DNA from: Vibrio quintilis
GTDB lineage: Bacteria > Pseudomonadota > Gammaproteobacteria > Enterobacterales > Vibrionaceae
Direction: 5' to 3'
Assembly (NCBI RefSeq): GCF_024529975.1
Contig: NZ_AP024897.1
Location: 434,001-498,000, forward strand
Length of the DNA stretch: 64,000 nt
A model generated the notes under the pieces. The model was given only the letters and a program-made list of their open reading frames with translations, had not been told where the DNA came from and searched no databases. Below are positions 33,524 to 47,645 of this stretch, one piece after another (positions within the stretch are counted from its first letter, which is position 1; every line of letters begins with the position of its first letter). The position numbers and the translations under genes are program-made.

Positions 33524-33580
33524 ATGTTCTCAGCGAACCGCTTTTCTGTTGCCCCAATGCTTGATGGGACTGATCAATAA
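33524..33580 (+). pseudogene. dusA: Stranded native 5' end of dusA
   Basis: An 18-codon frame, MFSANRFSVAPMLD then GTDQ and a stop. The first 14 codons match the start expected of DusA and correspond to RFSIAPMLD of the intact dusA at 46680. The native start has been separated from the rest of the gene by the prophage; the last codons are phage DNA beyond the crossover. The upstream host DNA (about 33480-33523) probably still holds the old dusA promoter. Confidence 0.85.
33539..33575 (+). repeat. Prophage attL
   Basis: 37 bases aligned with 46680-46716: CGCTTTTC, four scattered mismatches, then ATGCTTGA in common, then GGAC and GATC with three mismatches (7 differences in 37 in total). The shared ATGCTTGA (33557-33564) is the likely core in which the strand exchange occurred. 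Confidence 0.8.
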
Positions 33581-33819
33581 ATAAAATCAACATCTTAATT
33601 ACATCAAGGGAAACTATAGGGGTGTTTTTTTTGGGTAACTATTAAGAGGGGTACTGAAAATAGCCTAAAGATGCATATGATAGAATTTAAAAAAATCGTG
33701 ATTGCGATTGTTTCATATTGACTTGACGTTATCGATTACATAGAGTGACTTTCGAACCGGGATCTCAGATTCCCCCAATATAATTATTAGATTAAATGTT
33801 AGTTGCTATAGGTATTTAA

Positions 33820-34008
33820 ATGAGAAAAGGTTTGCAATCAATCCTTATGTATAACGAAAGGATTTGTATTCTGGCGGATGCATTGGCCGCGTGGGATATG
33901 GGGAGAGTTGATTTAACAGAAGAACGCGCGGCGCAAATTGGGGATATGTTATGGTCTCTGTGCTGCCAAATTGAAGTAGAGGTTAAACGAATCAAATCTC
34001 ATTGTTGA
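33820..34008 (+). CDS. Small prophage protein of unknown function
   Basis: 62 residues, helical and acidic in the middle (LADALAAWDMGRVDLTEERAAQIGDMLWSL) with a basic C-terminus and two cysteines in CCQ. No family recognised. It is the first gene inside attL and converges on the repressor gene, with a hairpin between. The upstream 240 bases are phage attachment-arm DNA with GGGGT motifs. Confidence 0.6.
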   Translation: MRKGLQSILMYNERICILADALAAWDMGRVDLTEERAAQIGDMLWSLCCQIEVEVKRIKSHC

Positions 34009-34010
34009 GT

Positions 34011-34038
34011 ATTTAAGGGCTCACTCGAGTCCTTAAAT
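34011..34038. terminator. Bidirectional terminator between early gene and repressor
   Basis: ATTTAAGG and CCTTAAAT form a stem around a CTCACTCGAG loop, overlapping the end of the repressor gene; A/T runs lie on both sides. Confidence 0.7.
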
Positions 34039-34629
34039 AAAAGTTCCGTTCCAAACAACTTTACCTACTATCTGTAGTTTATTTATTTCAGAGTCGTCTA
34101 ATTCCCACGCCTCATAATCGTGATTATCGCTGATCACATTTATACCATTCCTTAAAAACTGTAGGCGCTTTATCATAAGCTGGTTTTTAAATGTAAATAC
34201 ATAAATACCATCATTACTGAGCTTTTGACGATGAATGACAACGGGTGAGCCTTGTTTTAGGGTTGGTGCCATGCTGTCGCCGTCGGCCATCATCATAAAT
34301 AATTCAACCGGTTTTGTTTTTAATTCAGAGTCGATAAATGATTCACTAAATATCATTGGTGGTGTTTCATTGCTCTGAATCAGCTGACCATGTTCATCAG
34401 CGCGATACATATCAATAGAAATATAGCCGTGTGGCATCATTGGCGCTATGCCGCCGTTTTTTTTGGCTATTTGTTTAGCCATTAAATAAATTTTATCAGG
34501 AATTTTCTGCCTTTCTCGCCAAGTCGAAACCGTTTTAGGTGATATACCTAAAACTTCTGCTAAATCAGTATTTTTTGTTGTATTGGTCAGGCTTTTGATC
34601 TCAGCTAATTGCTCGTCGAATGAATTCAT
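34033..34629 (-). CDS. CI-like phage repressor with S24 peptidase domain
   Basis: About 198 residues from ATG 34629 (AAAGGACTTCAA upstream). An N-terminal CI-type HTH (DLAEVLGISPKTVSTWRERQKIP) is followed by a LexA/UmuD-like S24 domain: the catalytic serine is in GDSMAPTL and the general-base lysine in MIKRLQFL. That predicts RecA-stimulated self-cleavage and SOS induction, although no clear Ala-Gly cleavage pair is visible in the linker. It is divergent from the PrtN-like gene, with a row of direct repeats between them as the probable operator. Confidence 0.88.
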   Translation of the reverse strand: MNSFDEQLAEIKSLTNTTKNTDLAEVLGISPKTVSTWRERQKIPDKIYLMAKQIAKKNGGIAPMMPHGYISIDMYRADEHGQLIQSNETPPMIFSESFIDSELKTKPVELFMMMADGDSMAPTLKQGSPVVIHRQKLSNDGIYVFTFKNQLMIKRLQFLRNGINVISDNHDYEAWELDDSEINKLQIVGKVVWNGTFI

Positions 34630-34734
34630 TTGAAGTCCTTTTTTTTGATTGTGAGGTTGAAATATCTTAAATAAGACCTCATAATTCCTCATGTTGATTA
34701 TTTGAGGTCTTTTGAGTTCCTTTTGTTTTCTTTG

Positions 34735-34774
34735 GAACTTCGTTGAACCTCCTCGAACCTCTTCGAATTTTACT
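34735..34774. promoter_or_regulatory. Operator: four 10-bp direct repeats
   Basis: GAACTTCGTT, GAACCTCCTC, GAACCTCTTC and GAATTTTACT start at 34735, 34745, 34755 and 34765: exactly one helical turn apart. An inverted pair GACCTCA / TGAGGTC (34675-34709) lies on the repressor side. This is the only region between the divergent repressor and activator genes, so it should be the switch. Confidence 0.7.
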
Positions 34775-34788
34775 ATGAGATGGATGGT

Positions 34789-35043
34789 ATGAATACAAGT
34801 TTTGCATTATTAGCCCGGTTTGAGAGTCCTATTGTTGAATTGAAGCATATTTGTGATGAGTTTTTCGGGATAACTCCCGGTACAGCTGAGCAGCAAGCAA
34901 AAGCATGTGATTTGCCTGTGCCTACCTTCAAATTGCGCGAATCTAAACGTTGTCCGACTATGGTTATGATTTCTGACCTAGCTGATTACATTGATAGTCA
35001 ATATAAACAGGCTCGTGAAGAATGGGAGTCAGTCAATGTATAA
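34789..35043 (+). CDS. PrtN-like (pyocin activator) regulatory protein
   Basis: About 84 residues beginning MNTSFALLARFESPIVELKH and containing FGITPGTAEQQAKACDLPVPTF and DLADYIDSQ, which is the pattern of the PrtN family, activators of pyocin genes in Pseudomonas. In small phages it occupies the Cro/activator position. I chose ATG 34789 because the family begins MNT; ATG 34780 is in frame. It overlaps the next gene by 8 bases. Confidence 0.82.
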   Translation: MNTSFALLARFESPIVELKHICDEFFGITPGTAEQQAKACDLPVPTFKLRESKRCPTMVMISDLADYIDSQYKQAREEWESVNV

Positions 35044-35218
35044 CCAACCCCCCATACACAGCATAAACATAGACTTTTCACACTCTGGTGAAGCTAAAGC
35101 ATTGCTGAACGTTTTAGGTTCAGCAACACACCTTTCACCGCTTGAATTTCAAATGCGTGAGCGTGTAGTCAGGTCATTAATTGACTCTGTTCAACTGCTG
35201 GAAAGTCTGGAGGAATAA
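35036..35218 (+). CDS. Small prophage protein
   Basis: 60 residues from ATG 35036, overlapping the PrtN-like gene by 8 bases. The sequence contains FSHSGEAKALLNVLGSATHLSPLEFQMRERVV, a likely helical protein. No family recognised. Its place in the early operon before Rep suggests regulation or replication. Confidence 0.65.
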   Translation: MYNQPPIHSINIDFSHSGEAKALLNVLGSATHLSPLEFQMRERVVRSLIDSVQLLESLEE

Positions 35219-35229
35219 GGGGGCTTTCA

Positions 35230-35409
35230 ATGGATGAAGTGAATTACACCTTACCTAAAGGGCATAACTCCGAATATCTGGTCCCTTATCACAAGCCTTG
35301 CCCGGACATGATCACCGGGCAAAGCCTGACAGAAGAACAACGCAACAGAAACCTGTTCCTGATTCAAAAGCTAAGAGAGAAACACGGATTAAAACATGCT
35401 GAGCGATAA
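35230..35409 (+). CDS. Small 59-aa prophage protein overlapping rep
   Basis: 59 residues, MDEVNYTLPKGHNSEYLVPY at the start, with a CPDMITGQSLTEEQRNRNLF centre and a basic C-terminus. GGGGGCTTTCA precedes the ATG. It overlaps the Rep start by 14 bases in another frame, so translation of the two is probably coupled. Unknown function. Confidence 0.65.
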   Translation: MDEVNYTLPKGHNSEYLVPYHKPCPDMITGQSLTEEQRNRNLFLIQKLREKHGLKHAER

Positions 35410-37087
35410 AGATGTTGTATACATCGCGGGTGCTGCCCAGAATTCAGAGAAAACCAGACAGAACATAGCCGCCGTTGAGGGCGGTTTTTTTAGTGGTTTT
35501 ATTCATCCAAGGGATGATCAGTGGATGCATGATGAACTGGCTAAAGTCCGGCATCATGAACAACTGCATCATTTACGCACTCGCAAATCCTCAGAAACCG
35601 GGCGCGCAGCGCAACGCGAAGCGTTGAAAGACATAGGCTTGTCAAAGGGCGCAAAAGTCCGACAAGAGGGATTAAGAAGCAAATTATCCCGGATTCAGCA
35701 ACGTGTAAGCACTTTAAACCATGCTTTAAAACCGCTGTCAGTCCTTAGCAGCTCTGAGAGTTACTTCAGCCATGAAGGGCTGTATGAAAGCTATGAACAA
35801 AGCAATGATGACGGGAAATCAAGATTTTATCTGATGTCCCGCGAATGGTCAGGACAGTACAAAGGGCAACTGATTTATAAACCCCGTCCCTGTGATGCAC
35901 CGGATGCAAATGATGGTGAGCGTTACACAGAAAAACTGACCTCTCGGGCTGTGCGGAAAATTTTTGAATCCGGGGCTTATGTGGCCGCTGTTCATGGTGG
36001 GTTCACAACATTTCTTACCCTCACCTTTGATGCAGAACAGAGAGCGCGGATCTTCAGTGGTGAAATCACATTAGGAAGCGAAGTTTCCCGGTTCTTGGAT
36101 GGCCTGAAAAAAATGTACCAGCGGGGATTTCATGCTGAAGTCAAAGGCAAACAGGATAACGCCCTTCAGCACAATATTTCTCAATGCAGCGAGAGCCGCT
36201 TTGTTGAAGGCTCCGAAGAAGATTTTCATTACATGTGGGTCGCTGAATGTCCGGCAAATGAAGATGGTGAAGCTAACCCTCATGTACATTTACTGATGCG
36301 TTGGGGTGTTGAGCGCGATGTATTTGATTCATGGGCAAAACGGATTGAGAAAATCTGGGGTCATGGCATGGCAAATCTTCAGCGTATCAAATATCCGAAA
36401 GCGGCAGGTTCTTACATCATCAAGGCGGTTGGTTATGCCGCAAAAGGTAACAATGCCGAACAAGGGCTAATCAGGGGGAACCGTTACAACATAGCCCGGT
36501 GTTCTCGCGCTCCGGCTTGGGAAGTCCTTGCTTCCTTCGATGCTGCAAACATGGCTGGCATCATCAAAGAGTGTGGTTACAAACTCGAACAGTGGCGCGC
36601 ACCTATTGAACGGGATATCAGGCGTAAACAAACAAAAAAGAAAGAAGCCATCAAAGCCGCTGGTATTGCTAAATCAGAAGGAAATTCACGTCAGATTGTC
36701 CGCCTTCAACGGCTGATCCAATCGCTGGAAACAGAATCAAGAGAACTAAAAACACAAATGAAGTCTCGGGGCGTATTCGCCCGGAGTGACAACAATTTTT
36801 CAATCACCTTCGAAGGTGAAAACGCCAAAGACCAGATAAACGATTTTCTTATATGGGCTGCCGGAGCGCGTGACTGGACAATGAATACACCAGACGCAGA
36901 CCTGACTGATATCAAGCGTTCTGCAATAGAACGGTACGAGCCGCAATACCAACGATATTTGGAAAAGCGCGCAGACTGGAAAAGCTTGTTAGAACAAGCC
37001 TACCCGCCAACGCCGGATGATGACGAAATCAACCATGCTTTATCGACCTTTGAAAGGCAATTCCGACAATATCAATCAATCACCTGA
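35396..37087 (+). CDS. Rolling-circle replication initiator (HUH endonuclease)
   Basis: 563 residues. Motif 1 is TFLTLTFD (about residue 204), motif 2 is NPHVHLLMRW with metal-binding His296 and His298, and motif 3 is YIIKAVGYAAKG with Tyr340 and Tyr347, either or both of which could join to the DNA 5' end. This places it with large HUH Rep proteins of phiX174 gpA, P2 A and PM2 P12 type, nicking one strand to start rolling-circle replication of a circular genome. The C-terminal 170 residues are coiled-coil-like and basic. Length is normal for the family. Confidence 0.85.
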   Translation: MLSDKDVVYIAGAAQNSEKTRQNIAAVEGGFFSGFIHPRDDQWMHDELAKVRHHEQLHHLRTRKSSETGRAAQREALKDIGLSKGAKVRQEGLRSKLSRIQQRVSTLNHALKPLSVLSSSESYFSHEGLYESYEQSNDDGKSRFYLMSREWSGQYKGQLIYKPRPCDAPDANDGERYTEKLTSRAVRKIFESGAYVAAVHGGFTTFLTLTFDAEQRARIFSGEITLGSEVSRFLDGLKKMYQRGFHAEVKGKQDNALQHNISQCSESRFVEGSEEDFHYMWVAECPANEDGEANPHVHLLMRWGVERDVFDSWAKRIEKIWGHGMANLQRIKYPKAAGSYIIKAVGYAAKGNNAEQGLIRGNRYNIARCSRAPAWEVLASFDAANMAGIIKECGYKLEQWRAPIERDIRRKQTKKKEAIKAAGIAKSEGNSRQIVRLQRLIQSLETESRELKTQMKSRGVFARSDNNFSITFEGENAKDQINDFLIWAAGARDWTMNTPDADLTDIKRSAIERYEPQYQRYLEKRADWKSLLEQAYPPTPDDDEINHALSTFERQFRQYQSIT

Positions 37088-37097
37088 AAGGAAATAA

Positions 37098-37277
37098 ATG
37101 AGCAATCTTCAAACCGAAACAAACCGTTTACTCAATGAAATGGATACGGAATCCAAAGCTTATAAGCCGCCAATGGGATTTGGTTTCATTAAACCTTGGC
37201 TGATGAAAACCATCTGGTTATTCAAAGCCTTCAATCAACGATTAAACACATTGGAGGGGAAGATAAATCATGACTGA
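37098..37277 (+). CDS. Small 59-aa prophage protein
   Basis: 59 residues, MSNLQTETNRLLNEMDTESK at the start, then an amphipathic aromatic segment (MGFGFIKPWLMKTIWLFKAF). GAAAGGAAATAA precedes the ATG. It overlaps the next gene by 8 bases. It may associate with the membrane; function unknown. Confidence 0.65.
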   Translation: MSNLQTETNRLLNEMDTESKAYKPPMGFGFIKPWLMKTIWLFKAFNQRLNTLEGKINHD

Positions 37278-37659
37278 TTCAACTGATATTTTAGGTTACG
37301 TCGTTTGCCGGACCTGCCAGCAACCCAAAGCGATCAAACAGGGCAAAGGCAAAAGAGCAGCGTTCGTGCATGGCCGGTGTGAGTGTGGCCCGGATACCCG
37401 AACAGGCAAAGCAGCACAGGCAGAAATGAAAACCTTTCAGCCGCTTGAAGTGGTACAGGCACAGATAGAGGCGATGAAGCAGCCAGAGCCGGAACCACAA
37501 CCGGAATCTTTGCCCGTCCAGACGGAAAAGCAAACCGAATCTGAAACCAAACCGGAACCACAATCTAAACCAGTCACAACGGTGAAATGTGTCGGAATCG
37601 GGGCCGTTCTGGGGCTGGTCTGTGGTGGCATCATTAAAACAATCAAGGCGGTGGCGTAA
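37270..37659 (+). CDS. Zinc-ribbon-like prophage protein with C-terminal membrane helix
   Basis: 129 residues. Residues ~10-45 carry CRTCQQPK and GRCECGPD, four cysteines in two pairs as in a small zinc ribbon. A Pro/Glu/Gln-rich linker follows, then a single C-terminal membrane helix (CVGIGAVLGLVCGGIIKTI). GGGGAAGATAAATC precedes the ATG. It could link nucleic acid or a partner to the membrane vesicle of the virion. It overlaps the next gene by one base. Confidence 0.7.
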   Translation: MTDSTDILGYVVCRTCQQPKAIKQGKGKRAAFVHGRCECGPDTRTGKAAQAEMKTFQPLEVVQAQIEAMKQPEPEPQPESLPVQTEKQTESETKPEPQSKPVTTVKCVGIGAVLGLVCGGIIKTIKAVA

Positions 37660-38135
37660 TGGAAAATCAAACAGAATATTCAGAAAACGAAGTACAACCA
37701 GAAGAAATTTTAGAAACCCATTCTGAAGCAGAAGAAAACGCATTGCTTCAGGAGCTTTCCGGGGAAGATTTTAATCCGGATACCGCTGTTCAGAAATCAG
37801 ACCCGAAAAAAGAAGCGGCACTTGCTGCCGGGGAAGCAACCACAAAAGCCGTTCTGGGGGTGACAGAGCAGCTCATCAAACAATTTGCCCATAAGGATTT
37901 TACCTTTGATACCGCGCAGATTGACAACGTTGCCACCGCTGCCGCTCCCCTGTTCGTCAAGTACAACGGTGAGCTTCCGCCATGGCTGGCGGCTTACCGG
38001 GAAGAATTAACTTTCGTTGTTGCTGCCGGTGCGCTCGGTTTCTCTTCATTCACTCAAATCAAAGCCCTGAAAGCGATTGATCAAGCCAAAGATATCACCC
38101 CGGAGGAGCAAGAGCCGGAACCACATGGAGCGTAA
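37659..38135 (+). CDS. Acidic prophage protein with C-terminal hydrophobic segment
   Basis: 158 residues. The first 60 are very acidic and unstructured-looking; the middle is Ala-rich and helical (KKEAALAAGEATTKAVLGVTEQLIKQF), and near the end there is a hydrophobic stretch (LTFVVAAGALGFSSFTQI). Located just before the packaging ATPase, it might be an assembly or membrane-scaffold protein. No family recognised. Confidence 0.65.
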   Translation: MENQTEYSENEVQPEEILETHSEAEENALLQELSGEDFNPDTAVQKSDPKKEAALAAGEATTKAVLGVTEQLIKQFAHKDFTFDTAQIDNVATAAAPLFVKYNGELPPWLAAYREELTFVVAAGALGFSSFTQIKALKAIDQAKDITPEEQEPEPHGA

Positions 38136-38140
38136 CCCCC

Positions 38141-38800
38141 ATGCAGCCAATTAACCCGAATAACGCCCTGAAAAATGGTCATGTCTTTGCGGTTGGGATG
38201 AGCGGCAGCGGTAAGACTTCAGCGGCGAAAAAATTATTTATACAGGCGACAGATCAGGTCGCCATTTTTGACCCGATGGGCGATTACACCGGCCAGCTTG
38301 CCGGGCGAGTCGTCCGGGGCTATGAGAACATCAAAGACTTTGCAACGGCCCTGATAGCCGGGAGAAAGACCCGGCAGGGGTTCAAGATTGCTTATCAGCC
38401 AAAACACGAAACCAAACCAAAAGACTTTGATCAGTTCTGTCAGGTGGTTTGGGCGCTCGGTAACGGCAAGCACAAAAAGCCACTGAAAATCATCTGTGAA
38501 GAAGTAGCAGAGCACAGCGAAAACGCAGGAAAGGCGACCGGCTACCACGGCAAGATCTTACGCCTGGGCCGGAAGTTTAATCTTCATTCAATTAACTTAT
38601 TTCAACGGGGTCAGGAGGTATCAAAAACAATCATTGATAACTGTCAGCGCGCTTGTGTGATGATGCAGAAAACCCGCGCCAGTGCAATTTATCTGGAAAA
38701 AATGACCGGGATATCAGCCCGTGATATCGATCAGTTAAACCCGCTTGAGTATCTCTTACAGGACGGCAAGCAATACAAAAAAGGCGTGATCAAATGGTAA
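38141..38800 (+). CDS. FtsK/HerA-type genome-packaging ATPase
   Basis: 219 residues. Walker A is GMSGSGKT (19-26), Walker B is the hydrophobic strand ending IICEE (about 115-119), and a later RKFNLHSINLFQRGQEVSKTI segment carries the sensor and arginine-finger-like region. Short single-domain ATPases of this type package DNA into membrane-containing tailless capsids (PRD1 P9, PM2 P9). It lies directly before the capsid module, as in those phages. A filamentous Zot protein was considered, but there is no C-terminal membrane part. Confidence 0.82.
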   Translation: MQPINPNNALKNGHVFAVGMSGSGKTSAAKKLFIQATDQVAIFDPMGDYTGQLAGRVVRGYENIKDFATALIAGRKTRQGFKIAYQPKHETKPKDFDQFCQVVWALGNGKHKKPLKIICEEVAEHSENAGKATGYHGKILRLGRKFNLHSINLFQRGQEVSKTIIDNCQRACVMMQKTRASAIYLEKMTGISARDIDQLNPLEYLLQDGKQYKKGVIKW

Positions 38801-38882
38801 AATGAGATCTAAGTCACATTTATTGTAAACCCGATTCTAAATCCGGTTAGGAATCGATTGTAAATCTGATGTTTAAGTAAAG

Positions 38883-38921: not shown

Positions 38922-39035
38922 ATGAAACTAACTGGAAAGAATATTGCTGTTGTCAGCCTGATTGCTGCCGGTGTTGCCGCCGTCGTTGTCTGGGCATCAA
39001 ACAATGTTGATGCTGTTGAAGATGCGATCGGTTAA
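38922..39035 (+). CDS. Tiny single-helix membrane protein
   Basis: 37 residues, MKLTGKNIAVVSLIAAGVAA followed by VVVWASNNVDAVEDAIG. One membrane helix. AGGAACAC precedes the ATG. Small membrane proteins clustered with the capsid gene are typical of internal-membrane tailless phages. Confidence 0.7.
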   Translation: MKLTGKNIAVVSLIAAGVAAVVVWASNNVDAVEDAIG

Positions 39036-39861: not shown

Positions 39862-40134
39862 ATGTCATTTTTAGATGATCTGGGTAACTTTGGCTCGGGT
39901 TTGCTTGATAGCGTTGGAGAGGGATTCGACAACCTTGTCGATGCAGCTACCCAACCCACACAGAGTGTGAATTCGAAGACAGCCCCGCAAACCATGCAGC
40001 AGGCGGATGATAACGGGAACGCAGTCACCGCCAGTCAGATTCAGCCCAAAACCGATAAAACGCTGTTATATGTCGGCGGTGGGGTTGGCGTGTTGGTTGT
40101 GCTGGGCCTGTTCGCTCTGGCGCTGAAAAAGTAA
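39862..40134 (+). CDS. Virion membrane-associated small protein
   Basis: 90 residues: an amphipathic N-terminus (LDDLGNFGSGLLDSVGEGFDNLV), a polar Gln/Ala/Asp-rich middle and one C-terminal helix (YVGGGVGVLVVLGLFALALKK). A tail-anchored membrane protein made right after the capsid protein. GGGGGACTG precedes the ATG. Confidence 0.7.
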   Translation: MSFLDDLGNFGSGLLDSVGEGFDNLVDAATQPTQSVNSKTAPQTMQQADDNGNAVTASQIQPKTDKTLLYVGGGVGVLVVLGLFALALKK

Positions 40135-40143
40135 GGGGGAAAC

Positions 40144-40296
40144 ATGCCATTGATTTACTTAGCCCCGCTTGCTGCCGGGGCGCTCGGATTCGGGGCGGGC
40201 TTCTGGTCCGGCTCCGGTGTGACTAAATTGCTTAAGTTCGGTGCTATCGGGGGCGGCTGTTATCTCGCTTACCGTGCCGTGAAGGGGGCGCAATGA
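40144..40296 (+). CDS. 50-aa glycine-rich membrane protein
   Basis: 50 residues: LIYLAPLAAGALGFGAGFWS is one helix and LLKFGAIGGGCYLAYRAV a second, both small-residue rich. AAGGGGGAAAC precedes the ATG. The stop overlaps the next start by four bases (ATGA). Confidence 0.68.
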   Translation: MPLIYLAPLAAGALGFGAGFWSGSGVTKLLKFGAIGGGCYLAYRAVKGAQ

Positions 40297-40502
40297 TTCC
40301 TAGTATTGGCGGCGGGCTGACAAATAGTGGCTCTATGCCTATCAGTGCCGCCGGTGGAGCAGCCGGACCAAGTACGGCAAAAGGTCAAAATGATATTGGC
40401 GGGATTAAGAACGGCTCTATCAATTTTGGTGGTGGTTCTTCATCGTGGTTACCGTGGCTGGCGGTGGCAGCCGTTGCGATTGTATGGGTGGTCAAAAAAT
40501 GA
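40293..40502 (+). CDS. 69-aa glycine/serine-rich membrane protein
   Basis: 69 residues: a Gly/Ser/Ala-rich flexible N-terminal 50 residues and one C-terminal helix (WLPWLAVAAVAIVWVVKK). Overlaps both neighbours by four bases. Tail-anchored virion membrane protein is the most likely role. Confidence 0.68.
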   Translation: MIPSIGGGLTNSGSMPISAAGGAAGPSTAKGQNDIGGIKNGSINFGGGSSSWLPWLAVAAVAIVWVVKK

Positions 40503-40909
40503 AATTCACACTCATCAGGCACGACAGGGCCGATATTCAGGCGCAGTTTTCTTTTTTACGACCCGCTTTTAACGGTGTTCCGGCGGCAAAATACGAATAT
40601 CAGTTTTGCCGGGATGCAGTGATCAGCAAACAGGCCAGCTTTTATCAATTGAAAGGCCGTGGCGTTGCCGTCCGGTTCGTCGGCTTGGTAACTGACAGCA
40701 ATGATTACCTGATTCTGGCCCTGACCGGGCGCGGATTAAAACAGGCTGTCCCGCATATTATCCGGGCGGTTCAGTCACAAGGGTATTCAAGTCTCAGATA
40801 TCACACGGTCAGACCGGGGATGACCCGCATGTTACGGGCACTTGGTTTTCAACGTATCAGGCAAGAGCAGCCGGAAACAGTGATGTCTCTTGATTTGGGG
40901 GTGAAATAA
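40499..40909 (+). CDS. Prophage protein with possible GNAT-like fold
   Basis: 136 residues from ATG 40499. The C-terminal half (ALTGRGLKQAVPHIIRAVQS, then GYSSLRYHTVRPGMTRMLRALGF) has the helix-strand-helix order of the end of a GNAT acetyltransferase, where the last segment resembles a typical LYxxxGF motif. The N-terminal half gives no signature. Whether it binds acetyl-CoA is uncertain. It sits within the structural block. Confidence 0.6.
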   Translation: MKFTLIRHDRADIQAQFSFLRPAFNGVPAAKYEYQFCRDAVISKQASFYQLKGRGVAVRFVGLVTDSNDYLILALTGRGLKQAVPHIIRAVQSQGYSSLRYHTVRPGMTRMLRALGFQRIRQEQPETVMSLDLGVK

Positions 40910-41616
40910 TGGGCGGCGGCGGACATTCAACAAGTACAAATACAACAACAAACACAAATACCAGCGGAACCAGCGCGATCAGTGGCGATAATCTGGGGGT
41001 TGTGGTCAGCGGTGCCAATAACAGCACCATTAACGCCACTATGACCGATCAGGGCGCAATCAAAGCGGCGGCTGATATTGCATCAAAAGCAATTGAAGGT
41101 AATGCATCAGCGGTCTCTGATGCCCTGAATTCAAATAACAAGACCACGAAAGAAGCGTTTGATTTCGGTAACAGCTCGCTTGAATTCGGTAAAGACGCAC
41201 TGAAGACAAGTCAAAAGGCCATGAAAGAATCGCTGGGGTTTGGTCGCGATGCACTGGCAGCCACACAAGCCACAACAAAAGCGGCGCTTCAGTCGAATGA
41301 AAGCACGCTTAAACGGGCTTTATCTACAGCTCAGGAATCATTTTCCAGTGCGCTGGACTTCGGCACGGCTTCAGCCAAACGGCAGACCGAAACCGCAAAA
41401 GAAGCGATGCAGTCACTGCGTAAAAATAATGAAGACACAATTAGCGCCGTTCGTTCGATGGCGAGCCAGTCAAATCAGACCGCAAAATCGGCGTTAACAC
41501 TGGCGGACAGTGCTTCACAGCGCAGTCAAACAGGCAGCTCATCAGACATGATGAAAGTGACCGTTGCGGTTGCTGTCGTGCTTGGGGTGGCAATGATTGC
41601 CGTGATGAGGAAGTAA
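40909..41616 (+). CDS. Long helical fibre-like protein with C-terminal membrane anchor
   Basis: 235 residues. MGGGGHSTSTNTTTNTNTSG opens it, followed by a short beta-like segment, then about 140 residues of repeated amphipathic helix with heptad-like Ala/Ser/Thr repeats (for example FGKDALKTSQKAMKESLGFG, FGRDALAATQATTKAALQ) and a terminal membrane helix (VTVAVAVVLGVAMIAVMRK). It could form a membrane-anchored stalk or DNA-delivery tube. The glycine-rich start is unusual. Confidence 0.65.
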   Translation: MGGGGHSTSTNTTTNTNTSGTSAISGDNLGVVVSGANNSTINATMTDQGAIKAAADIASKAIEGNASAVSDALNSNNKTTKEAFDFGNSSLEFGKDALKTSQKAMKESLGFGRDALAATQATTKAALQSNESTLKRALSTAQESFSSALDFGTASAKRQTETAKEAMQSLRKNNEDTISAVRSMASQSNQTAKSALTLADSASQRSQTGSSSDMMKVTVAVAVVLGVAMIAVMRK

Positions 41617-41617
41617 C

Positions 41618-42226
41618 ATGATTATCGAAGCGAATGCAAAAAAACAGATTTCCGTCGGTGGCCGTGGCCGTTATCTGATTGTCAGGGCCTCTTCCGCCCC
41701 GGTTTATGTCTCTACCGATACATTGCGCCCTCAGCGTCTTCAGACCGGAGACCGGATCAATGTAGAACAGTTTAATGAATTGTTTGTTGAACATCATCAG
41801 GCCGGTGAGGTGACATTCGATTATCAGATCTCTGATTTAGAGCATAAACCCGCCGCCACTGACGATATTGTGATTAGAAAAATCATTGAGCCAATTCAGT
41901 TTGAAGCTCACGTCAAAGTGGATGACGGGCTGAAGGTGAAAACCATCTTACCGGCTCAGATGAGCACGTTTGATGACATCACCATTCAACCGGGGGAAAG
42001 CGTCCGGCTCACCAGTGGCGGATTTCGTCAGGTCACGATTCAGGTGATCAGTGATGCAATGACAAAAGTAAGAATTGGTGACAAGAGCACGGCTGCAAAC
42101 CGGGGATTGCTGGCAATGGGGAGTCAGTCCGCGATTGGTAGCTTGAGCATTGATTTCAGTGGTGAGGTGTATGGATATAACGCCAGTGAGACCACCGCAA
42201 AACTAACCGTTATGGGGGTCAAATGA
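41618..42226 (+). CDS. Beta-rich structural protein, vertex (penton) candidate
   Basis: 202 residues, beta-strand patterned, with two similar halves: QISVGGRGRYLIVRASSAPVYV in the first and ESVRLTSGGFRQVTIQVISD in the second each look like one small sandwich. No membrane helix. In tailless phages the vertex protein is a jelly roll coded near the fibre gene. The next gene overlaps by 4 bases and is fibre-like. Confidence 0.55.
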   Translation: MIIEANAKKQISVGGRGRYLIVRASSAPVYVSTDTLRPQRLQTGDRINVEQFNELFVEHHQAGEVTFDYQISDLEHKPAATDDIVIRKIIEPIQFEAHVKVDDGLKVKTILPAQMSTFDDITIQPGESVRLTSGGFRQVTIQVISDAMTKVRIGDKSTAANRGLLAMGSQSAIGSLSIDFSGEVYGYNASETTAKLTVMGVK

Positions 42227-42750
42227 GGATTAGTAACCCGGTAGACCTGTCTTCAGAATTTGCGGCGCTGGCTGCAAAGCTCACGACAGCTCAGACCGAA
42301 ATTCAGAGTAGCCAGAGCACACTATCAGAGAGTGTGACTGAAAAGCTTGAAGCAGTGAAAACAGATGTAACTGACTCTCTGAGTTCTGCCAGTGAGCAAA
42401 CATCGACTGCACTCACACAGACCAGAACGGCAATTGAATCAGCGATTAAATCAACCACAACGGCAGTTACCACCACAGAAACGGCGGTGATTGACGTCTG
42501 TAAAAATGCAAGAGCAACCATACTGACAGCCATTAACAACCACAGTGTGATTCGGCGTATTTATCAAATCACCACGAAGACGGGCCCAACCATCACAATT
42601 CCTTCGGTCAATCCGGCGAAAACGTTTGTGAACGTGAATGCTGAAGACTCTGCCGGGTATGCAGAACTCACGTCAGCAACAACACTGAAGCTGAACCGGA
42701 TTGGCTCAGCCAATAAATGGATGAGAGTACAGGTGATTGAATATGTATAG
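42223..42750 (+). CDS. Spike/fibre-like protein
   Basis: 175 residues: an N-terminal helical Ser/Thr-rich part (about 20-95, TLSESVTEKLEAVKTDVTDS and following repeats) and a beta-rich C-terminal part (YQITTKTGPTITIPSVNPAK to the end). This is the plan of a receptor-binding spike with a coiled-coil stalk. Overlaps both neighbours. Confidence 0.6.
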   Translation: MRISNPVDLSSEFAALAAKLTTAQTEIQSSQSTLSESVTEKLEAVKTDVTDSLSSASEQTSTALTQTRTAIESAIKSTTTAVTTTETAVIDVCKNARATILTAINNHSVIRRIYQITTKTGPTITIPSVNPAKTFVNVNAEDSAGYAELTSATTLKLNRIGSANKWMRVQVIEYV

Positions 42751-42907
42751 CGTACAACTGAATGAAAACAATATTGTTGTGGGAATAATGTCATTTCCAC
42801 CGCAAGACAAAAATCAAATTGCTGTACCTGAATTTGACGATAGTTTACTCGGTCTTCAATACGTGAACGGCCAGTTCGTTGACCCGGAGCCAGTCAGCAA
42901 TGAATAA
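42743..42907 (+). CDS. 54-aa small protein after the spike gene
   Basis: 54 residues, MYSVQLNENNIVVGIMSFPP at the start and VNGQFVDPEPVSNE at the end. The pattern resembles short tail-fibre-assembly-like or fibre-tip proteins in other phages. It overlaps the spike gene by 8 bases and the muramidase gene by 8 bases. Confidence 0.6.
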   Translation: MYSVQLNENNIVVGIMSFPPQDKNQIAVPEFDDSLLGLQYVNGQFVDPEPVSNE

Positions 42908-43418
42908 ATGGGTGTTATTCAGTGCTGCAATTGCGTCGGTTGCTGGTATGGGTTATGTCATATACCGGGCCGCTACCGGCAGCACTGCGACATCAGGAGC
43001 AGGAGAAAATACAGTGAAATCAAGTCAACCACGCGGAGTGAGAAACAACAATCCGCTGAATATCCGGGACAACGGAACAGACTGGCAGGGAATGTGCGAA
43101 ATCAATACAGATCCGTCTTTTGTTCAATTTGAATCAGCGGAATACGGGTTCAGAGCCGGGGCGCGCATTTTGCGCACCTACTACCGGAGCGGATACAAAA
43201 CACTCTCACAAATGATCAGCCGGTGGGCGCCGGTCAGTGAGAACGACACAGCAACATATATCCGGAACGTGAGCAACTGGACCGGCATCGGACCTCATCA
43301 AACCGTTGATGTCTATGACAGAAACACACTTTCAAATGTATTGCTGGCAATGAGTCGGCAGGAATCCGGCCAGTATTATGATATTGGCACTGCCAGGGAT
43401 GGGGTGATGCTGGCATGA
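42900..43418 (+). CDS. Virion muramidase / lytic transglycosylase-like protein
   Basis: About 172 residues from ATG 42900, with an N-terminal membrane helix (WVLFSAAIASVAGMGYVIYR). The catalytic part has RGVRNNNPLNIRDNGTDWQG, then VQFESAEYGFRAGARILRTY and SRWAPVSENDTATYIRNV, which is the pattern of proteins annotated structural protein P5 or phage lytic transglycosylase. Membrane attachment suggests a virion component that opens the cell wall during entry, and possibly lysis at exit. Confidence 0.82.
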   Translation: MNKWVLFSAAIASVAGMGYVIYRAATGSTATSGAGENTVKSSQPRGVRNNNPLNIRDNGTDWQGMCEINTDPSFVQFESAEYGFRAGARILRTYYRSGYKTLSQMISRWAPVSENDTATYIRNVSNWTGIGPHQTVDVYDRNTLSNVLLAMSRQESGQYYDIGTARDGVMLA

Positions 43419-43522
43419 GTATTACAACTAAATTTTATCTACAGAAAATAGCGCTATCGGTCGCAGGGGCAATCGTTGCCGCTTATACAATTAAAGGTCT
43501 TAAAAAGAGTGGATTATTATGA
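43415..43522 (+). CDS. 35-aa single-helix membrane protein
   Basis: 35 residues, MSITTKFYLQKIALSVAGAI followed by VAAYTIKGLKKSGLL. One membrane helix and a basic tail. It overlaps the muramidase gene and the next gene by 4 bases each. Confidence 0.65.
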   Translation: MSITTKFYLQKIALSVAGAIVAAYTIKGLKKSGLL

Positions 43523-43740
43523 GTGATTTTTTAAAAGACAAATTCAATATCGATTTAAACCAGCCTTCCACCCAAAAAGGGATCGCTTTAGTCGGTGCCG
43601 GGGCTGCTTTGGCGTTCGGTCATCCGGACTTATTAACGGCCAGTGTGACAGATACCGGGATTCAGTACGGTGGGATTGTCGGGACGGTGGTTCCGGTGCT
43701 GATTGGTTTGTTTGAGACTTTACGGGATGAGTTTAAATAA
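43519..43740 (+). CDS. Small membrane protein, holin-like
   Basis: 73 residues with an amphipathic N-terminus and two weak hydrophobic segments (GIALVGAGAALAFGH and YGGIVGTVVPVLIGLFETL). Position directly after the muramidase suggests a holin, but a virion membrane role is equally possible. Confidence 0.6.
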   Translation: MSDFLKDKFNIDLNQPSTQKGIALVGAGAALAFGHPDLLTASVTDTGIQYGGIVGTVVPVLIGLFETLRDEFK

Positions 43741-43892
43741 TGGCAGAGTATCAGACTTTAATTGTTGCCGCTGTCAGTGCGTTGTTTAGTGGGGTTGGCG
43801 TGGGGGTAACACTGAGAACAGATGTTAAGTGGCTTCGGCTGATGATGGAGAAAATGGATGTACGGGTCACTAACTTAGAGCAAAAAAAATAA
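43740..43892 (+). CDS. 50-aa membrane protein with cytoplasmic helix (holin/XhlA-like)
   Basis: 50 residues: LIVAAVSALFSGVGVGVTL is one membrane helix and the rest is a charged amphipathic helix (LRLMMEKMDVRVTNLEQKK). The layout is like small lysis-accessory proteins. Its ATG overlaps the preceding stop by one base and it ends the late operon. Confidence 0.62.
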   Translation: MAEYQTLIVAAVSALFSGVGVGVTLRTDVKWLRLMMEKMDVRVTNLEQKK

Positions 43893-43900
43893 TTTATGTA

Positions 43901-43935
43901 AATCCCCTTGATGATATCTCGTTGAGGGGATTTTT
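43901..43935 (+). terminator. Terminator of the late prophage operon
   Basis: AATCCCCTT and GAGGGGATT form the stem, followed by TTTT, 10 bases after the last late gene. Confidence 0.85.
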
Positions 43936-44087
43936 ATAATTAAATAATCAGTAATGATTATATTTAATTGAATGAATATCTCATATGATGAAATTTGTAT
44001 TTTCCTTCCTTTTTCTTCTCTACTCACAACCGTAGTATTTAAGCATAAATTTAAATTATTCATCTTCAGTTAGTTAGGTAAATTATA

Positions 44088-45107
44088 ATGTCAGGTAAAG
44101 GTCCTCTACCTTATGGAGTAAACGGCTCTCGCTATAGTGCTATTGACCATGCAGCAATTGAAAAAAGAGAACAAAAAAAGTTAGAACTGATCCAGCAAAG
44201 AATACAAGCGAGCAATAATACATTAAAGAGGATAGAAAAAAGTAAAGAAAAAGAAGCTGGCGATCAAAAAGACTGGCGTCCTGTTTCTGGATCATTCCCT
44301 CGCTTAGTGTTTGAAACAAAGAATAAAATGGACACTTTCTATAACCCTGATAATCCAAAATCTTCATGTCCTGAAGATATGAGGTATGGTGAAGAATCAA
44401 GAGATACTATTGAGTCTTATGGGTTTTGGTTACCGTTCAGAAACAAGACCAGATATTCTCCGACGCGAGGTTATGATATTCTTGTAGAGGATCAATTTAC
44501 TTTACCTGCACAAGAGCATTTCAAACGGATGAGAGACCTAGGTGAGGGCATTATCAGCTTTTCTATGTTAGGAAATGCAAAAAATTTATTTTCTAAAATG
44601 GTAGACAAGTTTGAGGAAAATAAAGGTGGCTATTATATGCATCCATTATTAGATGACGCAATGAAAGAACATAAAACAACCACTATCTTCCATTCTGCTC
44701 TGAAAAAATGTTTAGGGGAAAACATTAAAGATGGTGAGCTAAGTCAAGATATTGTAAATATATCTAGTAGTTATATGAGAACTTCTGGGAAAGGGGCTGT
44801 TCTTCCACAATTTAAAACAAAATCCCTAGACATTATTAAAGGAACAGTTATTACTGTTCATGGAATATGGGCAATGAAAGTATATGCAGATAAAATGGAA
44901 TATAAAGGAAATCAAATTAGAGGGGTATTTAAATATGAAATTCAAGATCATTTTGGTTTGGATTCCGCTGATGTAGACCATAAACATATAAATATCAATA
45001 GCCTTCCTTTTGAGCGATTAGAAGGGTTTAGATCATGGTACATATTGCAGCACTATAAAAAATACGGTTATAAACCATTTATAACAAAAATAGGATTTAA
45101 ACTATGA
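44088..45107 (+). CDS. DUF3289-type putative toxin (prophage cargo)
   Basis: A 339-residue protein without signal peptide or membrane helix. The C-terminal third (YEIQDHFGLDSADVD, then FRSWYILQHYKKYGYKPFIT) matches the DUF3289 (YPO3983) family, found in many Proteobacteria next to small membrane proteins and thought to be antibacterial effectors or colicin-like toxins. The N-terminal 60 residues are a charged coiled coil. The coding DNA is clearly more AT-rich than the phage core, and the upstream DNA carries a degraded Vibrio repeat (44059-44080), so it is probably a cargo gene taken from a vibrio chromosome. The next gene overlaps by 4 bases. Confidence 0.78.
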   Translation: MSGKGPLPYGVNGSRYSAIDHAAIEKREQKKLELIQQRIQASNNTLKRIEKSKEKEAGDQKDWRPVSGSFPRLVFETKNKMDTFYNPDNPKSSCPEDMRYGEESRDTIESYGFWLPFRNKTRYSPTRGYDILVEDQFTLPAQEHFKRMRDLGEGIISFSMLGNAKNLFSKMVDKFEENKGGYYMHPLLDDAMKEHKTTTIFHSALKKCLGENIKDGELSQDIVNISSSYMRTSGKGAVLPQFKTKSLDIIKGTVITVHGIWAMKVYADKMEYKGNQIRGVFKYEIQDHFGLDSADVDHKHININSLPFERLEGFRSWYILQHYKKYGYKPFITKIGFKL

Positions 45108-45382
45108 AACCAATCATAGTCAATACACTGCTTCTATGTCCTCCTGTCTGGTTTATATATATATGGTGTATTTCTTTTTTTAATATAGATATTAATATGG
45201 ATTTTATGCCAGAGTTAATTTGGGTATTACTGTTTTTTTTAGGTACACCATCAATGTGGATAACTGGCTCTATATACACTTTCTATAAAAAATCATGGTA
45301 TTGGTTCGGAGTATATATGTTTCTTGGAGGAATTCCTGTGGCAACTTATTTTATTTTATCTTTTATTCATGCTTACCTTTAA
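45104..45382 (+). CDS. Small membrane protein, probable immunity to the DUF3289 toxin
   Basis: 92 residues with three membrane helices (LLLCPPVWFIYIWCISFF; LIWVLLFFLGTPSMWITGSIY; WFGVYMFLGGIPVATYFILSF). It overlaps the toxin gene stop by 4 bases. A membrane-located immunity protein implies a toxin acting at or through the inner membrane. No family recognised. A bidirectional terminator follows. Confidence 0.7.
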   Translation: MKPIIVNTLLLCPPVWFIYIWCISFFNIDINMDFMPELIWVLLFFLGTPSMWITGSIYTFYKKSWYWFGVYMFLGGIPVATYFILSFIHAYL

Positions 45383-45385
45383 TGA

Positions 45386-45420
45386 AAATAAAGCTCTTGT
45401 AATCGAGAGCTTTATTATTA
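45386..45420. terminator. Bidirectional terminator between cargo and integrase
   Basis: AATAAAGCTCTTG and CGAGAGCTTTATT form a long stem with TAAT loop, with A/T runs on both sides; it ends both convergent genes. Confidence 0.85.
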
Positions 45421-45456
45421 AGTGATAAAAGGTAAATGTCATACAATTGATGTGTT

Positions 45457-46533
45457 TTATAGAACTGATAATTTTTTATCATGCAGTCTGTGGGGGAATA
45501 ATTGAGTATAAACCTGCCACAGAATATTTAAGTTTCTATGTCCGGTCACTTGTGCGACTTCTTCAATAGAATAACCTTTTTCAAATAGCTGGCTTGCGCC
45601 TTCTCTCCTTAAATCATGATATCGAAGGTCTTCTATTCCTAGTTTATTTCTGACCCGCTGAAATCCAGCGGTAACGCTTTTCGGATTATAGGGAAATATT
45701 CGATCACTTTGTTTGGGTTGTCTGATCGCAATATCATATGATTCACCTAACAATGGCACTATCATATGATTGCCTTCTTTCTTCCTTGGATCTTTCCTGT
45801 CTCTGACAAGTATTGTCTTATGCTTTTTATTCAGATCGTCCCAAGTGATTTTGCAAACCTCACCGATACGCATACAGGTGAGAATACTAAAATCTAATAT
45901 ATCTATATAAGGGATGCGGATCTGGCCATTGGGTCGGTATGATTGCCGCGTTTCCAGTTCTTCCCGGAGTCTTTCCAATTCATTTGTTGTCGGGCGGCGT
46001 GTGCGTTTTTGGCTCTTTCCTACCAGCTTCATATCAATCAGTATGGGAACTGCTTCTTCAAATACGGGGTAGTTTGCTGTGATGTCAAAGACAGGCTTTG
46101 CAAGTTTCATCACTGAGCGAAGGTAAGCAACATCATGATAAATTGTCACAGGCTTTGCTCCTGCTGCTTTGCGGTTTTTACAATGTTGTATCAAATCGCT
46201 GCTTTTGAGTTTGTTACTGTCAACTTTTGCGAGATCGCAATCTCTAAGCATCTGAATAACATATCGCTTTGTTCGTCCGGTGTTTCTCCACAGATCATTG
46301 TCGTTCATGAACATGTCTATTAGTTCACCAAGGGGGACTGACTTATTTTTAATGAGTCCCCCTTCTTCTAGTTCGTTTACTCGTTTTATGCCAAATGTTT
46401 TTGCCAGAGCTTTTTTCTTAAACGTTTTTGATTCACGGTGTACAATTTTAGAATCCTTTTTTACGATAATTGTAGTTTTGAATCTGAGGTCACCATTTGT
46501 TAAGGTCCGGGTTTCAATACTGTAACTAGCCAT
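45457..46533 (-). CDS. Tyrosine integrase
   Basis: 358 residues. Order: arm-binding and core-binding N-domain, then catalytic domain with Arg222 (CMRIGE), His306 and Arg309 (YHDLRRE), His332 (TGHRN) and the tyrosine nucleophile Y342 (QVYTQL). The set is complete, so it should be active. It is next to attR and reads away from dusA, the arrangement known for integrases that use dusA as target. ATG 46533 follows AGGATAAA. Its upstream region overlaps the GGGGTACT arm sites, so integration and expression may be linked. Confidence 0.93.
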   Translation of the reverse strand: MASYSIETRTLTNGDLRFKTTIIVKKDSKIVHRESKTFKKKALAKTFGIKRVNELEEGGLIKNKSVPLGELIDMFMNDNDLWRNTGRTKRYVIQMLRDCDLAKVDSNKLKSSDLIQHCKNRKAAGAKPVTIYHDVAYLRSVMKLAKPVFDITANYPVFEEAVPILIDMKLVGKSQKRTRRPTTNELERLREELETRQSYRPNGQIRIPYIDILDFSILTCMRIGEVCKITWDDLNKKHKTILVRDRKDPRKKEGNHMIVPLLGESYDIAIRQPKQSDRIFPYNPKSVTAGFQRVRNKLGIEDLRYHDLRREGASQLFEKGYSIEEVAQVTGHRNLNILWQVYTQLFPHRLHDKKLSVL

Positions 46534-46549
46534 TTTATCCTACTTCTGA

Positions 46550-46570
46550 AGGGGTACTGTGGGGGGTACT
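46550..46570. promoter_or_regulatory. Integrase arm-type sites beside attR
   Basis: AGGGGTACTG (46550-46559) and GGGGTACT (46563-46570), with related GAAGG repeats at 46594-46609. The same AGGGGTACTG occurs near attL at 33647-33656 and a related AGGGGTG at 33618-33624. Paired sites on both arms fit tyrosine-integrase arm binding. Confidence 0.6.
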
Positions 46571-46640
46571 ATACATCTAAGTTGCAGGACTTTGAAGGAG
46601 TTTGAAGGGGTATTTTATATGGTTAATTTTTGGGTTATTT

Positions 46641-47645
46641 ATGTCATATGTATTAAAATCAAATAGTTATCTAGTATGTCGCTTTTCCATTGCACCCATG
46701 CTTGACTGGACAGATCGTCACTGCCGTTACTTCCATCGCCTGCTGTCTTCTCAGACCCTGCTGTATACCGAAATGGTGACAACCGGTGCGATCATTCATG
46801 GCCGGGGCGATTTTCTGAAGTATAACGAAGAAGAGCATCCGGTGGCGTTGCAGCTGGGTGGTTCCAATCCGGCAGATCTGGCGGTGTGTGCAAAGCAGGC
46901 GCAGGAACGGGGTTATGATGAGGTGAACCTGAATGTGGGTTGCCCGTCTGACCGGGTGCAGAATGGCCGCTTTGGTGCCTGCCTGATGGGGGAACCGCAG
47001 CTGGTGGCGGAGTGCGTGGCAGCGATGCAGGCTGAAGTAGATATTCCGGTGACGGTCAAAACCCGGATTGGGATTGATGATCAGGACTCTTACGAATTTC
47101 TGAGTGATTTTATTACTATCGTGGCAGAGCAAGGAGGCTGTGAACAGTTTACTATTCATGCCCGCAAAGCCTGGCTGAGTGGTTTAAGCCCGAAGGAAAA
47201 CCGCGAAATTCCGCCACTGGATTACCCGCGGGCGTATCAGATTAAGCAGGATTTTCCTCATCTGAATATTGCGGTTAATGGTGGTGTCAAAACGCTGGCC
47301 GAAGTCAACGCGCATTTAGAGCATCTGGATGGCGTGATGGTGGGCCGCGAAGCGTATCAGAATCCTTACCTGCTGGCTGAAGTCGACCAACAAATTTTCG
47401 GCCTGGATACACCGGTGAAAAAGCGCTCTGAAGTGGTTGAAGCCATGTATCCTTATATCGAAGCACAACTGACAAAAGGCGCGTATCTGGGGCATATTTC
47501 CCGTCATATGATTGGTTTATTCCAGAATATGCCGGGTGCACGCCAGTGGCGGCGGTATATCAGTGAAAATGCGCATAAACCTGGTGCCGGGATTGAAGTA
47601 TTGCAAACGGCCCTGAAGAAAATTCCCGCTGAGTTAGATGTGTGA
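46641..47645 (+). CDS. dusA: tRNA-dihydrouridine synthase A with phage-supplied 5' end
   Basis: About 334 residues. From [16 protein letters not shown] on, this is DusA: FMN-binding barrel with [19 protein letters not shown] (catalytic Cys in GACLM), VKTRIGID and VNGGVKT. It reduces uridine 20/20a in tRNA D-loops. The first 13 codons ([13 protein letters not shown]) and the promoter come from the prophage; the native start lies at 33524. ATG 46641 has only a weak ribosome site; the in-frame TTG at 46602 is unlikely. The gene was probably kept functional by the phage. Confidence 0.93.
46680..46716 (+). repeat. Prophage attR
   Basis: 37 bases matching attL (33539-33575) at 30 positions, including CGCTTTTC and the core ATGCTTGA (46698-46705). 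Left of the core is phage DNA, right of it is host dusA. Confidence 0.8.

What the first reader, a model, noticed from the sequence alone, without database searches (positions are those of the whole stretch)
33539..46716. A complete temperate tailless (double-jelly-roll-like) prophage with cargo
The 13.1-kb element has a PM2 P2-length beta-rich capsid candidate beside a single-domain FtsK/HerA-type packaging ATPase, an HUH replication initiator, a membrane-anchored muramidase, at least eight proteins under 100 residues with membrane helices, and no tail, terminase, portal or filamentous genes. That combination defines membrane-containing tailless phages of the corticovirus kind (established from PM2). 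Here it is joined to a CI-type repressor, a PrtN-like activator and a tyrosine integrase, and everything looks intact. Integrated relatives of PM2 in vibrios have been reported, but the lineage and lifestyle of this one look little explored.
Basis: partly seen in the sequence, partly recalled or inferred. Interest (0 to 1): 0.9.

Follow-up and report, generated by a model that had tools for sequence, protein, structure and literature searches.

The report
Tailless prophage carrying a secretion-system weapon
A complete-looking dormant virus of the tailless, membrane-containing PM2 kind sits in the dusA gene of a Vibrio-family bacterium; the virus kind is already well known, but this one carries what looks like an antibacterial toxin of the cell's own injection system together with its antidote, a sort of passenger I did not find reported for such viruses.

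The parts
33517..33575 (.). attL region: truncated host 5' end of dusA (host start codon at 33524) joined to prophage DNA
   Evidence: 59-bp overlap of left-flank and dusA matches on the empty site L134; alignments
33820..34008 (+). 62-aa ORF of unknown function
   Evidence: ORF only
34033..34692 (-). CI/LexA-type repressor with S24 peptidase domain; SOS induction inferred
   Evidence: PF00717 1.4e-17, PF07022 1.9e-5; 49-51% to two V. cyclitrophicus prophages
34780..35043 (+).
   Evidence: PF11112 1.2e-18, phrog_1300 excisionase 3.7e-29; in 28 of 30 stretches with this integrase, 0 of 73 without; RdfN function shown in PMC8409611 (passages)
35036..35218 (+). small early protein; start chosen by homology to L006 (88%)
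35230..35409 (+). small early protein
   Evidence: 53% over 36 aa to L004/L005
35396..37087 (+). HUH-type replication initiator of the NO16 kind
   Evidence: PF23343 8.4e-9; phrog_38601 1.5e-227; 46-47% over full length to phage NO16, 59% to four V. cyclitrophicus prophages
37098..38135 (+). three early genes (37098-37277, 37270-37659, 37659-38135); the third sits where PM2 has gp h
   Evidence: 63-78% to L004; position against PM2
38141..38800 (+). packaging ATPase (PM2 P9 type)
   Evidence: phrog_2666 7.7e-41; PM2 P9 28%, E 2e-14; L004 87%
38922..39035 (+). P7-position small membrane protein
   Evidence: position between ATPase and capsid gene as in PM2; 68-89% to L004-L007; one hydrophobic segment
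39049..39852 (+). [quoted passage not shown]
39862..40502 (+). P3-, P4- and P8-position small proteins (39862-40134, 40144-40296, 40293-40502)
   Evidence: gene order as PM2; relatives
40499..40909 (+). protein of phrog_10333; N-acetyltransferase position in phage Jorvik
   Evidence: phrog_10333 2.6e-34; Jorvik annotation; start inferred
40909..41616 (+). gpJ homologue with C-terminal hydrophobic segment
   Evidence: 29% to PM2 gp j, E 4e-21; called P10 in the Jorvik record
41618..42907 (+). spike/receptor-binding region (41618-42226, 42223-42750, 42737-42907); function inferred from position
   Evidence: g18 31% and g19, g20 without match in L004; between gpJ and P5 as PM2 P1
42900..43418 (+). 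PM2 P5 homologue, probable virion-associated peptidoglycan hydrolase
   Evidence: 46% over 117 aa to PM2 P5; phrog_873 8.5e-50; same position hydrolase in Jorvik
43415..43892 (+). three small proteins of the release end (43415-43522, 43519-43740, 43740-43892); the last matches PM2 gp k
   Evidence: g24 34% over 44 aa to PM2 gp k region, E 2.5e-5; phrog_8494, phrog_37192
44088..45107 (+). CARGO: DUF3289 protein, probable orphan type VI secretion effector attacking the cell wall
   Evidence: PF11692 2e-32; 52% over 321 aa to an Hcp-DUF3289 fusion of the same genome; PDB DUF3289 entries 9jdi, 9jg8
45104..45382 (+). CARGO: 92-aa membrane protein, probable immunity protein
   Evidence: 34% over 85 aa to the protein behind the Hcp fusion L012, 47% over 32 aa to that behind L014; overlaps g25 by 4 bp
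45457..46533 (-). dusA-type tyrosine integrase
   Evidence: PF00589 1.3e-20; 72-75% to L004 and L005; dusA alongside in 27 of 30 stretches with it
46658..46716 (.). attR region
46641..47645 (+). dusA with prophage-supplied start (335 codons with the stop)
   Evidence: translation and alignment to the empty site

Best explanation
A temperate, tailless, membrane-containing phage of the order Vinavirales, integrated in dusA. Lysogeny (inferred): a CI/S24 repressor holds the early genes off and should be cleaved in the SOS response; RdfN then turns the dusA integrase to excision; the HUH Rep starts rolling-circle replication of the circle; P2-type capsid protein, small membrane proteins and the P9-type ATPase build and fill a lipid-containing shell; a P5-type peptidoglycan hydrolase helps the virion cross the wall. 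Integration cuts off the start of dusA, but the prophage supplies a new start, so dusA probably stays on. In the variable locus beside the integrase the phage carries a DUF3289 effector and its membrane immunity protein. Most likely the lysogen's own type VI secretion system delivers the effector into neighbours, where it attacks cell-wall synthesis, while the immunity protein protects the lysogen and its kin. Shown here: gene content, modelled fold of the capsid, integration, empty site, homology of the cargo to a type VI effector and immunity pair. Inferred: all activity.
For: Capsid families and fold. ATPase, gpJ, P5 and gp k matches to PM2. 21 of 27 prophage genes match V. cyclitrophicus phage 10N.239.312.A01_PE001 (E <= 0.01). 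Empty site and 59-bp att repeat. RdfN-integrase pairing 28 of 30 against 0 of 73, with RdfN shown to be the excision factor in PMC8409611 (passages). Cargo: PF11692; 52% to an Hcp-DUF3289 fusion; sheath protein VipB in the own genome, and in 8 of 8 genomes asked including it; DUF3289 with a 95-aa three-helix immunity protein shown to be a T6SS effector pair in A. jandaei (PMC12135965, passages) and likened to colicin M (PMC11148199, passages). Same pair directly behind gp k in V. ruber L035.
Against: No induction, circle, virion or secretion was shown. The capsid model is of moderate confidence (pLDDT 68), and the capsid does not reach PM2 P2 by tblastn at E 1e-3 or any PDB chain by profile at 0.01. 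The cargo has no Hcp, VgrG or PAAR of its own, so its loading route is unknown. My scan found two, not three, clear membrane segments in g26. The DUF3289 match covers profile positions 92-264 of 272, and g25 is below the cut-off of the related NCBIfam model (101.7 against 156.45 bits). The structure job for the cargo did not finish.
Confidence: 0.8

Rival explanations
1. The phage is as described, but the cargo is not a T6SS effector: it acts as a bacteriocin released on lysis, as an anti-phage abortive toxin with antitoxin, or as a virion or lysis component.
For: The variable locus of related prophages often holds defence or toxin-antitoxin genes (Steensen 2024). g25 has no Hcp, PAAR or VgrG fusion. 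Colicin M, to which DUF3289 is likened, is a released bacteriocin (recalled).
Against: 52% identity to an Hcp-fused DUF3289 in the same genome with a related immunity protein; no PADLOC match at E 0.001; an orphan DUF3289 effector is T6SS-secreted in A. jandaei (PMC12135965, passages); found in only 3 of 103 stretches, so not a core virion or lysis gene.
Confidence: 0.2
2. A defective or domesticated prophage: genes intact but no longer producing virions, kept for its cargo.
For: 41% of all prophages in V. cyclitrophicus looked inactive on induction (PMC11630473). G302 has the cargo pair beside gp k and only a piece of the gene before it (L034), so cargo can outlive the phage.
Against: The core genes are open frames, and 16 of the 18 genes g07-g24 match the sibling prophage L006 at 78-100% identity; both att regions are present.
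Confidence: 0.15
3. A plasmid-like integrative element or satellite that borrowed capsid genes.
For: Rep and integrase types are swapped freely among these elements.
Against: Capsid, packaging, small membrane, spike-region and P5 genes in PM2 order; tailless prophages amplify on mitomycin C in V. cyclitrophicus.
Confidence: 0.04

Closest known systems
dusA-integrated tailless prophages of Vibrio cyclitrophicus (Steensen 2024; compared with PQ189313, PQ189291)
   Same: Gene order, capsid 68-70%, ATPase 87%, integrase 72-75%, CI, RdfN-type gene, integration in dusA with the gene restored (described in the paper), accessory locus
   Different: Rep is of the NO16 kind, not the P2-A kind of those two; g19-g20 have no counterpart in them; cargo is a probable secretion effector pair
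Phage PM2 (Corticoviridae, Merivirus)
   Same: P2 fold and Pfam domains, P9, gpJ, P5, gene order
   Different: PM2 is lytic and 10.1 kb, without integrase; 3 of 27 genes match at E <= 0.01, 4 with the laxer statistics
Phage NO16 (Asemoviridae, Elsinorevirus)
   Same: Temperate, Vibrio host, Rep 47% identical, P2-type capsid
   Different: NO16 goes to dif sites (PMC9966536 passages); 4 of 27 genes match, 6
DUF3289 T6SS effector and immunity pair of Aeromonas jandaei
   Same: Orphan DUF3289 protein followed by a small membrane protein of 92 against 95 aa
   Different: Here it lies in a tailless prophage; secretion not tested

Membership tests
Vinavirales (PM2-like tailless phages) | P2-type double jelly-roll capsid protein | tested here: met
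   PF18628 and PF25513, which also hit PM2 P2 and NO16; model best match 2vvf
Vinavirales (PM2-like tailless phages) | P9-type packaging ATPase next to the capsid block | tested here: met
   order ATPase-P7-P2 as in PM2
Vinavirales (PM2-like tailless phages) | nine signature genes shared by the order (PMC12451628) | tested here: inconclusive
   The section read does not list the nine; by order the positions of PM2 and Jorvik from gp h to P5 are filled, but few match PM2 and none Jorvik by sequence
Vinavirales (PM2-like tailless phages) | icosahedral virion with inner lipid membrane, circular dsDNA | not testable with these tools
   needs particles
Corticoviridae / Asemoviridae (family placement) | shared gene content with the exemplar | tested here: inconclusive
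   E <= 0.01: PM2 3 of 27, NO16 4, PG21 7, Jorvik 0, YY 1; family limits were not in the text read; MfV (Parnassusviridae) was not held and Autolykiviridae not compared gene by gene
dusA-integrated tailless prophage group (Steensen hotspot H1) | integration in 5' dusA with gene restored, own integrase | tested here: met
   integrase 72-75%
dusA-specific integrative elements | RdfN (PF11112) excision factor with an IntdusA | tested here: met
   PF11112 1.2e-18; co-occurrence; role as in PMC8409611 (passages), not tested in this phage
DUF3289 T6SS effectors | DUF3289 domain | tested here: met
   113 bits against cut-off 25
DUF3289 T6SS effectors | adjacent small membrane immunity protein | tested here: met
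   g26 overlaps g25 and is homologous to proteins behind two Hcp-DUF3289 fusions; neutralisation not tested
DUF3289 T6SS effectors | T6SS-dependent secretion | not testable with these tools
   T6SS sheath gene present
DUF3289 T6SS effectors | RIX or other known sorting domain at the N-terminus | not tested
   RIX proteins include DUF3289 members (PMC10435454 passages) but no RIX profile was at hand

The most novel reading that the evidence does not exclude
Tailless PM2-type phages are a regular vehicle for type VI secretion effector-immunity modules in one Vibrio clade: lysogeny hands the host a new loadable weapon plus its antidote, so that infected cells kill uninfected neighbours and the prophage spreads by arming its carrier. 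The module hops between phages with different integrases, and effectors of the same family also ride in a Mu-like prophage and in an island of the same genome.
Probability: 0.35. Interest if true: 0.7.

Novelty: new variant of a known kind. Interest (0 to 1): 0.5.

Why it matters
The accessory locus of tailless prophages has been discussed mainly as a place for phage defence. Probable secretion effectors with antidotes in the same slot, seen in four genomes of one clade and in two effector kinds, would mean that these small phages also spread weapons between bacteria. It gives a 13-kb system in which to test whether a phage pays its host by arming it.

Tried and rejected
Viral contigs (IMG/VR) were scanned with the capsid alignment A1 and the cargo alignment A4: patterns matched 144 and 53 stretches, none a relative. 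The profile of A2 found no PDB chain at E 0.01, so PM2 P2 is reached only by Pfam and fold. Reading the PrtN-like gene as a pyocin-type activator was rejected. Reading g21 as a plain endolysin was set back in favour of a virion hydrolase. Exact direct repeats between the two end regions reach only 11 bp, at an unrelated place; the att repeat is imperfect. The S-type pyocin DNase near the third prophage was considered as cargo and set aside: it lies beyond the dif-like repeat.

Limits of the census. The 103 stretches are the window, two sibling stretches and 100 others; they are not all places, overlap in part (G201, G049), and L035 was fetched for its DUF3289 gene, not for a capsid gene. L035 and L036 are two contigs of one draft genome, and that they are one prophage is inference. 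A3 holds 49 ORFs of 80 aa or more from 29 of 31 integrase-bounded loci (L062 and L004 gave none that long). A6 holds 140 of the 175 ORFs listed and includes host neighbours; the 11 loci named at the end were left out. One search printed all its 25 families, one search printed 25 of 344, one search printed 25 of 55; none says which member matched or how many of the ORFs matched nothing.

Papers. Steensen PMC11630473 parts 1 and 3-6 of 9 plus passages; Krupovic and Bamford PMC1950889 parts 1-2 of 5; PMC12451628 passages and one section; PMC9966536, PMC12135965, PMC11148199, PMC10435454, PMC8409611, PMC12777771 passages only; others seen only in listings. That such cargo is unreported rests on paper searches, whose further papers I saw only as listings, and on phage-record searches. 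One search was weak: its stem 'corticovir' could not match as a whole word. PMC12777771 reports Corticoviridae prophages without known virulence determinants in V. vulnificus. Supplements (for instance Steensen Table S5) could not be read, and no preprints are held. Recalled, from no call: the dif pattern used, colicin M being a released bacteriocin, motif names such as HUH.
Full report
WHAT IS THERE. The window lies at C1:434001-498000 of a 5.85-Mb genome in three contigs (4.12 and 1.69 Mb and a small third). Named relatives by capsid are Vibrio, Photobacterium and Moritella; the closest named ones are V. ruber and Vibrio sp. MEBiC08052 at 81%. The element runs from the att region 33517-33575 to 46658-46716 and is 13.14 kb long. 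Its genes are open.

IT IS A KNOWN SORT. Forty-two of 50,697 phage records hold a related capsid, 30 of them at 60-80% identity, all under Vibrio. Against one of these, a V. cyclitrophicus prophage with the same integrase type, 21 of the 27 prophage genes match at E <= 0.01 (whose printed 22 includes dusA). Steensen and colleagues describe tailless prophages as inducible, those of hotspot H1 integrated in the 5' end of dusA with the gene restored, and carrying a variable accessory locus. PM2-like prophages with integrase and CI repressor were already seen in 2007. In my family search 96 of 329 genomes have a P2_N match.

INTEGRATION. The closest relative G102 has an uninterrupted dusA: window 33408-33575 matches L134 at 91% and window 46658-47682 at 87%, and the two matches overlap by 59 bp there. 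The host start codon of dusA (33524) is cut off; the prophage supplies a new one (46641; 335 codons with the stop). Among 103 stretches around P2-type loci, 30 have this integrase, 27 of the 30 with dusA found; the PrtN-domain protein is in 28 of the 30 and in 0 of the other 73. The two exceptions are a contig that ends near the capsid gene (L121) and a stretch with a second, different integrase (L077). In dusA islands of Vibrio this protein, RdfN, is the excision factor (PMC8409611, passages).

MOSAICISM. The same genome holds two more P2-type prophages. One (L006, next to tRNA-Asp and tRNA-Trp genes) matches 16 of the 18 genes g07-g24 at 78-100% (g15 and g16 do not match), yet has another integrase and Rep, and a CI of 27% over 86 aa. 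The other (L007, chromosome 2) has a dif-like site at one end and a 17-bp repeat at both. Best-matching Rep type among the 30 integrase-matched stretches: 13 of the L004 kind, 9 of the NO16 kind as here, 7 of the L006 kind, 1 none.

THE CARGO. Between gp k and the integrase lie g25 (339 aa) and g26 (92 aa, overlapping by 4 bp). g25 has a DUF3289 domain (2e-32) and matches PDB chains named DUF3289 family protein. DUF3289 has been likened to colicin M by structure and shown toxic in E. coli (PMC11148199, passages), and an orphan DUF3289 protein with a 95-aa three-helix immunity protein is a tested T6SS effector pair in A. jandaei (PMC12135965, passages). This genome has three other DUF3289 genes: one behind VgrG, two fused to Hcp. 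One Hcp fusion lies in a Mu-like prophage (Portal_Mu 3.8e-99), one in an island with integrase and GPA-type Rep next to a gene that by eye looks like dusB. g25 is 52% identical over 321 aa to the C-terminal part of Hcp fusion L012, its own N-terminus being short and different; g26 is 34% identical over 85 aa to the protein behind that fusion. A T6SS sheath gene is present. The simplest reading is an orphan effector and its immunity protein.

IS THE CARGO A ONE-OFF? No. V. ruber contig L035 has the pair (76 and 71%) directly behind gp k; G302 has it (69 and 62%) behind a second gp k copy (78% over 50 aa) that is preceded by only a piece of g23, next to a complete prophage. L038 (G102) and L037 (V. 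ruber) have PAAR plus TseH-like genes and a shared third gene, in L038 right behind gp k, in L037 right behind the P5 homologue with no gp k found. L037 has its integrase at the other end, beside CI. So 5 of 103 stretches carry recognisable T6SS modules. All 5 are among the 14 stretches from the host and the six genomes with the best dusA matches (76% or more, of eight asked), a grouping I made after seeing the result; none was found in the other 89 by the tblastn queries (E 1e-3). In the dusA-bounded loci the Pfam and PADLOC scans of 49 cargo ORFs show restriction-modification, reverse-transcriptase, SIR2 and candidate defence families beside other families, nearly all in one ORF each, and DUF3289 only in the window (only 25 of 344 PADLOC families are printed). 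In the wider set of 140 ORFs TseH and PAAR occur twice each. In the phage records the window's effector has two hits, both Salmonella contigs (25-26% identity); TseH has one distant hit in a faecal phage record (33%).

LIMITS. Nothing here shows activity. The link of effector to T6SS is by homology. T6SS module counts rest on known families only and on one clade with few species, so they may reflect shared descent. The identity of G234 as V. ruber and G254 as Vibrio sp. MEBiC08052 rests on equal contig lengths. The accessory tables of the main paper were not readable, so a supplement may already list such genes.

VERDICT. As a phage it is a new member of a described group. Its cargo makes it a new variant worth a bench test.

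Noticed in passing
window 33055-33297; 13 places in the genome: An 80-aa ORF left of the prophage belongs to a family with 13 places in this genome at E <= 0.001, itself included; by eye, similar ORFs lie beside effector islands and prophage ends (L142 314-562 and 11829-12071, L034 420-587 and 16925-17092, L037 3690-3890, L007 16969-17169).
   Followed up: partly
L143 8372-9841 (G000 C1:2848000-2867900): An Hcp-DUF3289 effector fusion with two small membrane proteins sits inside a Mu-like tailed prophage of the same genome.
   Followed up: partly
L142 1557-11449 (G000 C1:309000-328900): Island with integrase and GPA-type Rep carrying a second Hcp-DUF3289 fusion, beside a gene that looks like dusB.
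   Followed up: partly
L007 14964-16577 (G000 C2:802500-821500): S-type pyocin DNase (PF21431 8.4e-57) with Im-type immunity protein (PF01320 7.9e-26) just outside the dif-like end of the chromosome 2 prophage.
   Followed up: partly
L006 3110-3744: Cargo of the sibling prophage: 152-aa protein without Pfam match plus a 56-aa hydrophobic protein; relatives of the first at 37% in G162 (L040, L041). Possibly another toxin and immunity pair.
   Followed up: partly
L040 and L041 (G162): Two P2-type prophage stretches of G162, one on a 3.47-Mb contig and one on an 11.9-kb contig, with equal identities to most queries: perhaps an excised circle assembled apart.
   Followed up: no
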